Source: an uncultured Anaerolineae bacterium
Lineage (GTDB): Bacteria; Chloroflexota; Anaerolineae; CG2-30-64-16
Assembly (NCBI GenBank): GCA_937124585.1
Contig: CAKZKT010000120.1
Span: forward strand, 1 to 35,975
Reading direction: 5' to 3'
Length of the DNA stretch: 35,975 nt
Shown in pieces: positions 4,567-17,497 of the stretch; the first letter of the stretch is position 1; each line of letters begins with the position of its first letter. A program made the translations under genes and the position numbers. The notes beneath the pieces are model-generated. The model was given only the letters and a program-made list of their open reading frames with translations. It was not told the origin of the DNA and searched no databases.

Positions 4567-5496
4567 ATGTCGCAAATCGCCTATCTCTTTCCCGGACAGG
4601 GTTCCCAGGCCGTCGGCATGGGCATGGCGTTGGCCCAACGCTACGCCGTGGCCGCCGAGACCTTCACCGAAGCGGATGCCATCCTGGGCTTCCCCCTCTC
4701 GCAGCTCTGCTTCGCAGGGCCGGCCGAGGTCTTGACGGCCACACAGAACGCCCAGCCGGCCATCTTGACGGCCAGCATCGCCGCGCTGCGGGTGTTGCGG
4801 GCTGAACGGCCCGACCTGCCGACGCCGGCATACGTGGCCGGCCATAGCCTGGGCGAATACAGCGCGCTCGTGGCCGCCGAGAGCCTGACCTTCGCCGACG
4901 CCGTGCGCCTGACGCGCGCGCGCGGTGAGCTGATGGCCATGGCCGGCGAACGCCATCCCGGCAGCATGGCCGCCATCCTGCGGCTGGACGACGCGCAGGT
5001 GGCTGCGCTGTGCGCCCAGGCAGTCGCCGAGTCCGGCGATGTCGTCCAGGTGGCCAACTACAATTCCCCTGGCCAGGTGGTGATCTCGGGCGGTCCGGCC
5101 GGCGTCGCTGCGGCCACCGCGCTCGCCAAAGCCGCCGGCGGCCGGGTCGTGCCGCTCGCGGTCAGCATTGCTGCCCATTCCGCGCTCATGGCGCCGGCCG
5201 TGGAGCCCTTCGCCCAACGCGTGGCGGCAACTCCCTGTGCGCCTCCGCGGCTGCCGATCATCGGCAATGTCCAGGCACAGCCGCTGACCACGGTCGAGGA
5301 GATCCGGGCCGAGCTGGTGGCCCAGCTGACGGCCTCGGTGCGCTGGACGGCCTCGATCGCGGCGATGATCGCCGGGGGCGTCACCCGCTTCGTCGAGATC
5401 GGCCCGGGTGCCGTGTTGACCGGCCTGGTAAAACGCATCGCGCCGACCACAGAAACAGCCAACGTCGCCACGCCGGAAGATGTGGCAAACGCATGA
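4567..5496 (+). CDS. fabD: malonyl-CoA:ACP transacylase
   Basis: FabD moves malonyl from coenzyme A to acyl carrier protein for fatty acid elongation. The 309-residue protein begins MSQIAYLFPGQGSQ, the family's glycine-rich start. It carries the nucleophile elbow GHSLGEYSA with Ser94 at the centre, and the catalytic His204 in IAAHSALM. ATG 4567 is chosen because conserved sequence starts there; an in-frame ATG at 4498 would only add translated leader. No strong Shine-Dalgarno sequence is visible, and a hairpin ends 14 bases upstream, so expression may be tuned. fabG follows after 12 bases. I saw no acpP or fabH in the window. Confidence 0.95.
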   Translation: MSQIAYLFPGQGSQAVGMGMALAQRYAVAAETFTEADAILGFPLSQLCFAGPAEVLTATQNAQPAILTASIAALRVLRAERPDLPTPAYVAGHSLGEYSALVAAESLTFADAVRLTRARGELMAMAGERHPGSMAAILRLDDAQVAALCAQAVAESGDVVQVANYNSPGQVVISGGPAGVAAATALAKAAGGRVVPLAVSIAAHSALMAPAVEPFAQRVAATPCAPPRLPIIGNVQAQPLTTVEEIRAELVAQLTASVRWTASIAAMIAGGVTRFVEIGPGAVLTGLVKRIAPTTETANVATPEDVANA

Positions 5497-5508
5497 AGGG
5501 AGGGCGTT

Positions 5509-6252
5509 ATGTTGGAGGGGAAGATCGCAGTCGTCACGGGTAGCTCGCGCGGCATCGGCGCGGTCATTGCCAAAGAGCTGGCCGCCCAGGGCGCCACGGT
5601 CGTCATCAACCATCGTGACAGCGCCGCGCAGGCCGAAGCGGTCGCAGCAGAGATCAACGCGGCCGGCGGCCAGGCGGTTGTGATCGCCGCCGACGTGAGC
5701 CAGTTCGTCGAGGCGCAGCGCCTGATCAAAGAGACCGTGGACCGTTTTGGCCGGCTCGACATCCTCGTCAACAACGCCGGCACCACACGCGATATGTTGA
5801 TCATGATGATGTCCGAGGCCGATTGGGACCTGGTGATCGAGACGAACCTGAAAAGCGCCTTCAATTGCGCCAAAGCAGCCGTGCGGCCCATGATCAAACA
5901 GCGCGGCGGCCGGATCATCAACATCACCTCGGTGTCGGGACTGGCCGGCCAGGCCGGTCAGACCAATTATTCGGCCTCCAAAGCCGGCATGATCGGCTTC
6001 ACGAAAGCGCTGGCCAAAGAAGTCGGCCCGCGCGGGATCACGGTGAATGCCGTGGCGCCGGGGTTCGTGCCGACTGCTCTGACCGACGTGCTGACCGAAG
6101 AGCAGAAGCGCACGATCATTAGCATGACGCCGCTGGGCCGCTTCGCCCGGCCAGAGGAGATCGCCTACGCGGTCGCCTTTCTGGCCAGCGATCGCGCCGC
6201 GTTCATCACCGGCCAGGTGCTGAGTGTGGACGGCGGCCTCGTCATGCAGTAG
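5509..6252 (+). CDS. fabG: 3-oxoacyl-ACP reductase
   Basis: FabG is the NADPH-dependent ketoreductase of fatty acid synthesis and a classical short-chain dehydrogenase of 247 residues. The dinucleotide-binding motif TGSSRGIG is at residues 10-17 and NNAG lies in the middle. The catalytic triad is Ser141, Tyr154 and Lys158, in ITSVSG and YSASK. The C-terminus (TGQVLSVDGGLVMQ) is typical. GGGAGG precedes the ATG. The pairing with fabD 12 bases upstream supports a fatty-acid role over a generic SDR. Confidence 0.94.
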   Translation: MLEGKIAVVTGSSRGIGAVIAKELAAQGATVVINHRDSAAQAEAVAAEINAAGGQAVVIAADVSQFVEAQRLIKETVDRFGRLDILVNNAGTTRDMLIMMMSEADWDLVIETNLKSAFNCAKAAVRPMIKQRGGRIINITSVSGLAGQAGQTNYSASKAGMIGFTKALAKEVGPRGITVNAVAPGFVPTALTDVLTEEQKRTIISMTPLGRFARPEEIAYAVAFLASDRAAFITGQVLSVDGGLVMQ

Positions 6253-15149: not shown

Positions 15150-16208
15150 ATGGAGTCCCTATCTGAAACAGCCGGCCGAACGATACTCGAACAACGCGCC
15201 AGACTTGCCGAAGCGATCGTAGCCCGCCAGTACAGCGAGCAGGCCGCGATCTGGGCGCGTTACGGGGCCACGGGCCGCCACAAGTCGCTGCAAGATGCCT
15301 CTTATCACCTGACTTACCTTGCCGAGGCCGTGGTCGCCGCAGACCCCTCGCTCTTCAACGATTATGTCGCTTGGGTCAAAGCGCTTTTCGCCGGCCTGGG
15401 CTTCCCGGAAACAGCCCTGGCCGACACCCTGACCTGGACACGCGAGGCGCTGCGCGAGGGCTTGCCCGCCGAACTGTGGGCCGCCGTCGAGCCCTATCTG
15501 ACCGCAGCGCAGGCCAGCCTGCCCGCGGCCGCGGCCGAACCGCCCAGCTTCCTGAGCGGCGACTCGCCCCTCACCCTGCTGGCCCGCTGGTATCTCGACG
15601 CGCTGCTGGCCGCCGACCGTCGCACGGCCAGCCGCCTGATCATGGACGCAATCGCCTCGGGCGTGAGCGTGCGCGACATTTACCTGGGCGTCTTCCAGCC
15701 CGTCCAACGCGAGATCGGCCGGCTGTGGCAGACAAATCGCGTGAGCGTGGCCCAGGAGCACTTCTGCACGGCTGCCACGCAACTGATCATGTCGCAGCTC
15801 TACCCCTACATCTTCTCGACCAACCGGACGAACCGCCGGCTCGTCGCCACCTGCATCGGCGGCGAGCTGCATGAGATCGGCATGCGGATGGTCGCCGATT
15901 TCTTCGAGATGGAGGGCTGGGACACCTATTTCATGGGCGCCAATACACCCCTGCCCAGCATCCTGCAGACGGTGAAAGAGCGACAGGCTGACCTCCTCGC
16001 CATCTCCGCCACCATGACCTTCCACGTGCGCGGGGTGCATGAGTTGATCGCGGCGGTGCGCGACATGGACGGCGGCCGTCGCGTGCCGATCATGGTGGGC
16101 GGCTACCCGTTCAACGTGTCGCCGCAGCTCTGGCGCACCGTGGGCGCAGACGGCTACGCGCCGAACGCGCAGGAGGCGATCGGTGTAGCGACCAGGCTGA
16201 TCGGCTGA
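15150..16208 (+). CDS. B12-binding protein with CarH-type photoreceptor signature
   Basis: The C-terminal half is a cobalamin-binding module. A four-helix cap (about 130-215) carries W193-x9-E203-H204, the W-x9-EH signature of CarH/LitR-type adenosylcobalamin photoreceptors. A Rossmann domain follows with ELHEIG (Glu239, His241, Gly244), then exactly 41 residues to S286-A-T288, then 28 residues to Gly317-Gly318. That is the ExHxxG-x41-SxL-x24-28-GG spacing described for CarH, with Thr in place of Leu. His241 should be the cobalt ligand. Position 194, next to the Trp, is Gln; CarH of Thermus has His132 there, which binds cobalt after light. The first 130 residues are a helical domain with no DNA-binding motif. 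A histidine kinase gene starts 17 bases later. GAGGAGG precedes the ATG. Confidence 0.85.
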   Translation: MESLSETAGRTILEQRARLAEAIVARQYSEQAAIWARYGATGRHKSLQDASYHLTYLAEAVVAADPSLFNDYVAWVKALFAGLGFPETALADTLTWTREALREGLPAELWAAVEPYLTAAQASLPAAAAEPPSFLSGDSPLTLLARWYLDALLAADRRTASRLIMDAIASGVSVRDIYLGVFQPVQREIGRLWQTNRVSVAQEHFCTAATQLIMSQLYPYIFSTNRTNRRLVATCIGGELHEIGMRMVADFFEMEGWDTYFMGANTPLPSILQTVKERQADLLAISATMTFHVRGVHELIAAVRDMDGGRRVPIMVGGYPFNVSPQLWRTVGADGYAPNAQEAIGVATRLIG

Positions 16209-16225: not shown

Positions 16226-17497
16226 ATGCAACAAATCATCCCGAAAGCCGGGCAGGGCCTGGTGCTGGAGTGCGATGCGGCCGGGATCATCACCAAAGTG
16301 CTCTGGGATGATCTCGGCCTGAGCGCGCGGCTGCGCACCGGCCAGCCGCTCTCCGCGCTCGTCGAGCGCGAAAGCCGCGCCAAAGCGCACAACTTCGTGC
16401 TGGCTCTGCGTGCCGAAGGCGCGACGTTCGACTGGGAGCTCAACGTCCCGCTCGGCGGGACCATCACGACGCTGCGCTTCGCTGGCATCACGAGCGGCGA
16501 TTCGTTGCTCGTCCTGGCGGCCAAAAGCAACGGCGAGCTGATGAAGCTCTACGAGGCGCTTGCGGCCATTAACAACGAGCAGACCAATGTCCTGCGTGGC
16601 CTGCTGAAGGAACGCGTGATGGCCGAACGTGCCCCCGATCCGAGCGACACATCGCTGTACGACGAGCTCAGCCGGCTGAACAACGAGCTGGCCGATGCCC
16701 AGCGTCAGCTGGCGAAACAAAACGCCGAGCTGGAACGCCTCAACGCCCTGAAAAACCAGTTCCTGGGCATGGCCGCCCACGACCTGCGCAGTCCCCTCTC
16801 GATCCTGCTGGGCTACAGCGAATTCCTGCTCGAAGACCTGCGCGATAGCCTGAGTGCGGAGCATGTGGAGTTCCTGGAGACGATCCACGCATCCAGCCAG
16901 TTCATGCTCCAGCTGGTGAACGAGCTGCTGGATGTCTCGATCATCGAATCAGGTCGGCTGGAACTGCACATCGAGAGAACCGATCTGGTGGGCCTGACGC
17001 AACACAGCGTGGCCCTCAACCGGGTGCTGGCGGCTCGCAAACAGATCAACGTGACATTTCACAGCGCCGGCGAGATCCCGCAGCTGCTTGTTGATCCGGG
17101 CAAGATCCGCCAGATGCTGGACAATCTCCTGTCCAACGCCATCAAGTACTCGCAGCCCGGCACCGAAGTGACGGTGAGCCTGACCCGTCAGGGACAAGAG
17201 GTCATCCTGGCCGTGGCAGATCAGGGCCAGGGCATCCCGGCCGACGAAATGCACAAGTTGTTTCAGTGGCTGGGCAAAACAAGCGTGCGCAGCACTGGCG
17301 GGGAGAAAAGCTCGGGCCTGGGGCTGGCGATCGCCAAGCGGATCATCGAGGGGCACCGCGGCCGGCTGTGGGCAGAAAGCGAGGTGGGCAAAGGTTCGAC
17401 GTTTTACGTGGCGCTGCCCGTGGAAGAGCCAGAGGCCGTCGCAGACTCGCCGGCCGGCCGCGCGGACGTCGACGCGTCGAGACCTGGCGCTGCCTGA
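16226..17497 (+). CDS. sensor histidine kinase with PAS-like N-terminus
   Basis: The 423-residue protein has no membrane segments, so it is cytosolic. Residues 1-110 look like a PAS-type sensor domain (LVLECDAAGIITKVLWDDLG). A coiled-coil linker (130-180) leads to the dimerisation helix with the phospho-accepting His185 in AAHDLRSPLSIL. The ATPase domain shows DNLLSNAIKYS, DQGQG (332-336) and GLGLA (364-368). It begins 17 bases after the B12 protein gene, which suggests the two work together. No response regulator is in the window. The last 94 bases overlap the convergent mogA gene, and that tail (after about residue 392) is low-complexity. Confidence 0.92.
   Translation: MQQIIPKAGQGLVLECDAAGIITKVLWDDLGLSARLRTGQPLSALVERESRAKAHNFVLALRAEGATFDWELNVPLGGTITTLRFAGITSGDSLLVLAAKSNGELMKLYEALAAINNEQTNVLRGLLKERVMAERAPDPSDTSLYDELSRLNNELADAQRQLAKQNAELERLNALKNQFLGMAAHDLRSPLSILLGYSEFLLEDLRDSLSAEHVEFLETIHASSQFMLQLVNELLDVSIIESGRLELHIERTDLVGLTQHSVALNRVLAARKQINVTFHSAGEIPQLLVDPGKIRQMLDNLLSNAIKYSQPGTEVTVSLTRQGQEVILAVADQGQGIPADEMHKLFQWLGKTSVRSTGGEKSSGLGLAIAKRIIEGHRGRLWAESEVGKGSTFYVALPVEEPEAVADSPAGRADVDASRPGAA

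What the first reader, a model, noticed from the sequence alone, without database searches (positions are those of the whole stretch)
15150..16208. CarH-type B12 photoreceptor signature without a DNA-binding domain
W193-x9-E203-H204 and Glu239-x-His241-x-x-Gly244, then x41, SAT, x28, GG match the CarH-family cap and Rossmann spacing exactly. CarH proteins are transcription repressors with an N-terminal MerR domain. Here the N-terminus is a helical domain with no DNA-binding motif. Position 194, which corresponds to the light-state ligand His132 of Thermus CarH, is Gln, so the light response, if any, must differ.
Basis: partly seen in the sequence, partly recalled or inferred. Interest (0 to 1): 0.68.

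Follow-up and report, generated by a model that had tools for sequence, protein, structure and literature searches.

The report
Light-sensor protein paired with a kinase
The gene encodes a predicted two-pigment (vitamin B12 plus bilin) light sensor of the recently described photocobilin family, with its two parts in reversed order; in about 19 bacterial and archaeal phyla it sits next to a dedicated signalling partner that carries a nearly invariant helix, which looks like the plug the sensor docks on.

Summary
The ORF (15150-16208, 352 aa) and its motifs are real. The B12 half carries the light-sensor cap (W193-x9-E203-H204) and cobalt ligand H241. The N-terminal "helical domain" is a phycobiliprotein-like photoglobin: AF2 pLDDT 96, Z 17.4 to allophycocyanin over residues 1-126. 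It keeps D49 and W75, equivalents of the biliverdin contacts Asp270 and Trp296 of crystallised photocobilin SasPcob. The protein is therefore a photocobilin in globin-then-B12 order, an order already noted in the 2024 photocobilin paper. Q194 is also Gln in SasPcob, whose light state is aquo-cobalamin, not bis-His.

What may be new is the system. In 80 full-length homologues from about 19 phyla, D49, W75, W193, E203, H204 and H241 are invariant. In 77 of 80 the next gene carries a 23-residue helix (LNNELVxxQRELAKKN), fused to histidine kinases or GGDEF domains or standing alone, with a PpsR-N-like PAS in 64 and without it in 13. The helix occurs once per genome in 36 of 40 genomes. AppA/AerR dock on the corresponding PpsR/CrtJ linker. 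Heme oxygenase is missing in the window's genome and in 44 of 50 others, yet lies beside the sensor gene in 4. Light response, docking and chromophore are untested.

The parts
15150..16208 (+). photocobilin-type sensor gene (P0001, 352 aa): N-terminal photoglobin + C-terminal B12-binding module
15150..15527 (+). photoglobin / phycobiliprotein-like globin domain (residues 1-126) with D49 and W75 (equivalents of SasPcob Asp270 and Trp296)
   Evidence: Pfam Phycobilisome 3.9e-4 (38 of 62 homologues match, best 5.4e-9); AF2 + VIA Z 17.4 to allophycocyanin 9i1r_I over residues 1-126; D49 and W75 in 81/81
15573..15812 (+). four-helix cap of the B12 module (residues 142-221): W193, Q194, E203, H204, T210, Q211
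   Evidence: Pfam B12-binding_2; W193, E203, H204, T210 in 81/81 and Q211 in 80/81
15837..16202 (+). Rossmann-like B12-binding domain (residues 230-351), lower cobalt ligand H241
   Evidence: Pfam B12-binding 2.4e-24; H241 81/81
16226..17497 (+). partner: cytoplasmic sensor histidine kinase (P0002, 423 aa), 17 bases after the sensor's stop codon
   Evidence: HisKA 7.8e-16 and HATPase_c 1.3e-27; homologue directly downstream in nearly all loci
16253..16534 (+). PAS domain of the partner (residues 10-103), specifically similar to the N-terminal PAS of PpsR
   Evidence: AF2, Foldseek/VIA PAS fold, hhalign prob 90.6 to PpsR-N against 42.4 / 3.5 / 1.3 for PAS1 / PAS2 / generic PAS
16652..16720 (+). 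conserved linker helix of the partner (LYDELSRLNNELADAQRQLAKQ): proposed docking/relay element
   Evidence: directly downstream in 77/80 loci, 13 of them without the PAS, 0 elsewhere in the flanks; once per genome in 36 of 40 genomes, twice in 4
16751..16954 (+). HisKA phospho-acceptor domain of the partner
17093..17425 (+). HATPase_c domain of the partner

Best explanation
15150-16208 encodes a photocobilin in globin-B12 order that works in trans on the histidine kinase encoded next to it. Predicted cycle: in the dark, adenosylcobalamin is held base-off on H241 with its adenosyl group against W193/E203/H204, in a CarH/SasPcob-like dimer. Where a bilin is available it sits in the globin pocket (D49, W75) and widens the usable spectrum. 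Light breaks the Co-C bond, adenosine leaves and the E203/H204 helix moves. Because residue 194 is Gln, the light state should be aquo/hydroxo-cobalamin as in SasPcob. The moved helix, which also carries the family-specific pair T210-Q211, changes its contact with the partner's linker helix (LNNEL..QRELAKKN), which runs straight into the kinase's HisKA domain, and so alters kinase activity. Shown here by computation: architecture, residue conservation, conserved gene pair, near-exclusive co-occurrence of the linker. Inferred: AdoCbl and bilin binding, light response, docking on the linker, sign of the kinase response.
For: Photocobilins 8J2W/X/Y are the top relatives by profile (150.7 and 122 bits) and by structure (Z 27.4-26.8). 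Globin fold at residues 1-126. Residues matching SasPcob His108, Trp61, Glu71-His72, Asp270, Trp296 are invariant in 81/81. The genome has an adenosyltransferase, PF01923 8.9e-46. The partner linker is adjacent in 77/80 loci from about 19 phyla, unique in 36 of 40 genomes, and goes with different outputs (HK, HK-REC, PAS-HK-REC, GGDEF, stand-alone; a variant with STAS) and with loss of the PAS. Precedent: AppA-SCHIC contacts the PpsR Q-linker in 4HH3, and AerR is modelled the same way through helix 4 residues incl. Gln112 (PMC9144470). Gln at W+18 is shared by this family (80/81), the Chloroflexales-type B12-only proteins (3/3) and AerR/PpaA (7/8) but not by CarH-type proteins (8/8 Arg) or C-globin photocobilins. 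Standalone photocobilins can regulate a separate enzyme by protein contact (PMC10979010). A heme oxygenase gene lies directly beside the sensor gene in 4 loci, two lineages.
Against: No spectroscopy, binding or kinase data. No heme oxygenase in the window's genome or in 44 of 50 homologue genomes, and many hosts look like anaerobes living in the dark, so bilin and even light are uncertain. The linker match to the PpsR Q-linker is by eye only; a profile comparison of the linkers alone gives nothing. In the B12-module tree the window family does not group with C-globin photocobilins, although that grouping is not rejected (p-AU 0.395). The photocobilin paper itself found a fusion (AbDPcob) with weak bilin binding.
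Confidence: 0.7

Rival explanations
1. It is an adenosylcobalamin-level (or redox/heme-catabolite) sensor rather than a light sensor: ligand occupancy, not photolysis, sets the contact with the kinase.
For: Many homologue hosts are sediment, digester or other presumably dark anaerobes by their record titles; no heme oxygenase in 44 of 50; B12-fold AppA SCHIC senses heme (PMC9144470).
Against: Every residue that shields or reacts to the photolabile adenosyl group in CarH/SasPcob (W193, E203, H204) is invariant in 81/81, which a simple B12 sensor would not obviously need; homologues occur in phototrophs (heliobacteria) and the D49/W75 bilin pair is kept.
Confidence: 0.18
2. A CarH-family transcription regulator that has lost its DNA-binding domain, or an AerR-type antirepressor that acts on a transcription factor.
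For: CarH-type cap; no DNA-binding domain; gene order B12 protein then PAS protein is the same as aerR/ppaA-ppsR, and the partner PAS resembles PpsR-N.
Against: N-terminus is a globin, not a relic of MerR; the adjacent partner is a kinase here and a signalling output in the other partners scanned; none of the ten partners scanned with Pfam had an HTH.
Confidence: 0.06
3. A corrinoid protein of a methyltransferase system.
For: Generic Rossmann B12 motif; NCBIfam corrinoid models score slightly above the CarH model, all far below their cut-offs.
Against: Cap W-x9-EH present; corrinoid proteins form a separate 100/100 branch; no methyltransferase found next to it in the window; fused globin.
Confidence: 0.02

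Closest known systems
Photocobilins SasPcob (8J2W/8J2X) and AbDPcob (8J2Y), PMC10979010
   Same: B12 module with W..EH and E/DxH motifs fused to a globin domain; Asp270 and Trp296 equivalents; Gln after the cap Trp as in SasPcob
   Different: Domain order reversed (globin first); Asp kept where AbPcob has His; no fused output; dedicated partner gene with a conserved linker helix. The paper states that photocobilins with the AdoCbl domain at either end exist.
AppA/AerR(PpaA) - PpsR/CrtJ of purple bacteria (4HH3, 7TE2, PMC9144470)
   Same: B12-fold regulator gene directly before the gene of a PAS protein; partner PAS specifically similar to PpsR-N; partner helix after the PAS; Gln at W+18 in the regulator's fourth helix
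   Different: PpsR is a DNA-binding repressor with two more PAS domains; AerR/AppA have no globin; here the outputs are kinases, GGDEF or none
BBAG-2 globin + B12-binding protein clusters (PMC10151467)
   Same: Same two domain types, biliverdin-binding globin of the photoglobin lineage
   Different: There the two are separate genes with a bilin reductase; here one polypeptide with a kinase partner
Thermus CarH
   Same: Four-helix cap and Rossmann B12 module, W-x9-EH, lower-ligand His
   Different: MerR DNA-binding domain and light-state His132 absent

Membership tests
Photocobilin | CarH-like cap W-(9/10)x-EH and E/DxH cobalt-ligand motif | tested here: met
   W193/E203/H204/H241, invariant in 81/81
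Photocobilin | globin-like (photoglobin) domain in the same chain | tested here: met
   profile hits to 8J2X globin (1.1e-5) and allophycocyanins; VIA Z 17.4, 126 residues, 2.2 A
Photocobilin | key bilin contacts Asp270 and Trp296; no covalent Cys | tested here: met
   D49 and W75 align with them; Ser46 at the Cys position
Photocobilin | binds AdoCbl and biliverdin, photoconverts | not testable with these tools
   needs protein; heme oxygenase not found in this genome
CarH/LitR | N-terminal MerR DNA-binding domain | tested here: not met
   residues 1-126 are a globin; no HTH family
CarH/LitR | His at the residue after the cap Trp (bis-His light state) | tested here: not met
   Gln194; 65/81 Gln, 7/81 His in the family
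AerR/PpaA-AppA with PpsR | partner with PpsR-N PAS and following helix | tested here: met
   hhalign prob 70 (full PpsR) and 90.6 (PAS to PpsR-N), controls 42.4/3.5/1.3; helix similarity by eye only
AerR/PpaA-AppA with PpsR | partner is a DNA-binding repressor | tested here: not met
   partner is HisKA-HATPase kinase
Methyltransferase corrinoid protein | groups with MtaC/MtbC/MetH-type proteins, lacks photoreceptor cap, methyltransferase nearby | tested here: not met
   separate 100/100 branch, cap present, no methyltransferase found in the window

The most novel reading that the evidence does not exclude
A widespread trans-acting optical plug-and-socket: globin-B12 sensors that dock on one short helix (LNNELVxxQRELAKKN) which evolution has grafted onto kinases, cyclases and STAS proteins, with AerR-PpsR of purple bacteria as a DNA-binding offshoot of the same pair, and with a linear tetrapyrrole other than biliverdin (or an empty pocket) in hosts that lack heme oxygenase.
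Probability: 0.3. Interest if true: 0.8.

Novelty: new variant of a known kind. Interest (0 to 1): 0.62.

Why it matters
Photocobilins have been characterised only as a stand-alone protein or a direct fusion, both with the globin C-terminal to the B12 module. Here is a large family in the other order whose likely output can be read from the genome: the next gene, through a single short helix that is kept when everything around it changes. That gives a defined, portable handle for red/green-light control of kinases or cyclases, a common frame for AerR-PpsR and photocobilin signalling, and a directly testable puzzle: what fills an invariant bilin pocket in hosts without heme oxygenase.

Tried and rejected
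Methyltransferase placement: rejected by the cap and the tree. The tree is unrooted; the window family and the corrinoid proteins lie on one side of a 95/88 branch against CarH plus C-globin photocobilins, which is what a root on the corrinoid branch gives, so I draw no sister-group claim. Globin order as a circular permutation of one ancestor versus two separate fusions: not resolved (AU p 0.395). Anaerobilin synthase HutW as bilin source: no hit over the cut-off in 51 genomes, only sub-threshold matches as in nearly all control genomes. Profile of the partner PAS against PDB sequences: no PpsR hit at E<=1, so the PpsR link rests on hhalign with controls and on Foldseek identity (21-23% over 140+ columns; VIA ranks ordinary PAS domains equally). 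Linker-to-Q-linker profile match: none. AerR protein against P0001 by BLASTP: insignificant. The photoglobin paper (Schneider 2022) is not held, so I could not check whether it already lists this operon.

Full report
Observation. The ORF at 15150-16208 (+) is a 352-aa protein. The cap W193-x9-E203-H204, the ligand motif E239-x-H241-x-x-G244 and the SAT/GG positions are as described. Pfam finds B12-binding_2 at 148-217 and B12-binding at 230-344, and, just below its cut-off, Phycobilisome at 37-120. The Rossmann spacing is generic to B12 proteins: corrinoid proteins of the same genome share x41 and x28, while Thermus CarH has x41 and about 22. Only the cap is photoreceptor-specific.

N-terminal domain. 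A profile of 62 homologues finds the globin of SasPcob (1.1e-5 for that stretch) and some two dozen phycobiliprotein chains (down to 6.8e-7) with residues 5-127; 38 of 62 members match Pfam Phycobilisome, best 5.4e-9. The AF2 model (mean pLDDT 95.6, pTM 0.90) gives Z 17.4 to an allophycocyanin over residues 1-126 and Z 27.4/26.8/26.8 to photocobilins 8J2W/8J2X/8J2Y over 138-352, above methyltransferase corrinoid protein 3EZX (24.2) and CarH (about 21). So this is a photocobilin with the globin first.

Residues. From the alignments (chain index + 5 = published SasPcob numbering, fixed on His108) the SasPcob residues named in PMC10979010 map as: His108 = H241, Trp61 = W193, Glu71-His72 = E203-H204, Asp270 = D49, Trp296 = W75, and the residue after Trp61 is Gln in both. 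AbPcob, which binds biliverdin poorly, has His at the Asp position; the window protein has Asp. In 81 sequences D49, W75, W193, E203, H204 and H241 never vary. The lit SasPcob has water/hydroxide on cobalt and no bis-His state, so Q194 is expected, not odd. The photocobilin paper says that members differ in having the AdoCbl domain at the N- or C-terminus, so the order itself is not new.

Family. 80 full-length homologues (43-61% identity, 341-380 aa) come from 19 named phyla including Chloroflexota, Bacillota (heliobacteria, Paenibacillus), Bacteroidota, Pseudomonadota, Acidobacteriota, Spirochaetota and two Promethearchaeota. In a tree of the B12 module the corrinoid proteins are a separate 100/100 branch and the window family forms a 95/86 branch; C-globin photocobilins and CarH proteins are further branches.

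Partner. The window's next gene, 17 bases downstream, is a soluble histidine kinase (HisKA, HATPase_c). Across the 80 loci a relative lies directly downstream in nearly all, with a 4-base ATGA-type overlap in 32. What is constant is not the kinase. A PAS domain plus a 23-residue helix (consensus LYDELSRLNNELVxxQRELAKKN) precedes HisKA kinases, HK-receiver and PAS-HK-receiver hybrids, GGDEF cyclases or nothing at all (stand-alone 166-171 aa). The helix is present just downstream in 77 of 80 loci, with the PAS in 64 and without it in 13 (mostly Paenibacillus), and nowhere else in the flanks; its mean column identity is 73% against 43% for the PAS. In 40 whole genomes it occurs once in 36 and twice in 4. 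Among 400 genomes of the window's phylum the PAS-helix profile is found in 6, always on the contig of, and close to, a B12 gene of this family. These six include G391 (GGDEF-like output), G125 (helix on a different kinase type, no PAS) and three genomes where a B12-only protein sits beside PAS proteins with a divergent helix; the one scanned carries a C-terminal STAS domain (1e-17).

Mechanistic parallel. In AppA-PpsR the B12-fold SCHIC domain contacts the long Q-linker helix after the N-terminal PAS, and AerR was modelled onto CrtJ the same way via its fourth helix (Thr105, Ser109, Gln112) (PMC9144470). The partner PAS here prefers PpsR's N-terminal PAS (hhalign prob 90.6, E 1.3e-6) to PpsR PAS1 (42.4), PAS2 (3.5) and other PAS domains (1.3). 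aerR/ppaA and ppsR have the same gene order, with a 4-base overlap in several plasmids. The residue equivalent to AerR Gln112 (W+18, Q211) is Gln in 80/81 of this family, 3/3 Chloroflexales-type proteins and 7/8 AerR/PpaA, but Arg in 8/8 CarH-type proteins and Glu/Glu/Gly in three C-globin photocobilins. I infer that helix 200-216 docks on the partner's linker helix. The linkers themselves show no profile similarity to the PpsR Q-linker, so this step is inference.

Chromophores. An ATP:cobalamin adenosyltransferase is present. No heme oxygenase is found in the 99.8%-complete window genome, in 44 of 50 homologue genomes or in 386 of 400 genomes of the phylum. Yet in four loci, three related and one unrelated, a heme oxygenase gene is immediately next to the sensor gene. 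So biliverdin is the likely ligand where it can be made, and the ligand elsewhere is open, although D49 and W75 are kept there too. Scavenged bilin, another linear tetrapyrrole or an empty structural pocket remain possible; HutW-type anaerobilin synthases were not found over the cut-off.

Verdict. The protein is a new member, in the less-studied order, of a known family. The conserved two-gene system, its near-unique linker helix with interchangeable outputs and its link to AerR-PpsR make it a new variant of a known kind. Whether the 2022 photoglobin paper already lists this gene pair could not be checked.

Noticed in passing
L055, L057-L059, L061, L064, L068, L074, L080, L085, L087, L092, L099, L100, L103, L106, L114, L118 (photoglobin position 46): 18 of 81 homologues have Cys three residues before the invariant Asp49 (C-x-x-D), the place of the phycobiliprotein CXRD attachment cysteine; these could bind a bilin covalently, unlike SasPcob and the window protein (Ser).
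   Followed up: partly
L046, L052, L053 (about 5150-5800, -) and L079 (about 4880-5718, +): Heme oxygenase genes directly beside the photocobilin gene, two independent arrangements; supports biliverdin as chromophore in those hosts.
   Followed up: yes
L122, L125, L126 (genomes G439, G418, G120): B12-only proteins (220-233 aa, 46-51% identical to the window B12 module) with no photoglobin match in the fetched flanks, next to PAS proteins, one shown to carry a STAS domain.
   Followed up: partly
G305:C97, G354:C574, G071:C63: A different, 719-751 aa open frame with a B12-binding stretch lies within about 7 kb of a heme oxygenase gene in three genomes of one family of the same phylum.
   Followed up: no
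L120 / G125:C1: The linker helix is fused without PAS to another kinase type (HisKA_2-like by eye: ELQHRVKNNMQVISSLI), a further independent PAS-less partner.
   Followed up: partly
L041 and L117 (same genome assembly): One Anaerolineae genome carries two photocobilins; the second (L117) has no recognisable partner downstream.
   Followed up: no
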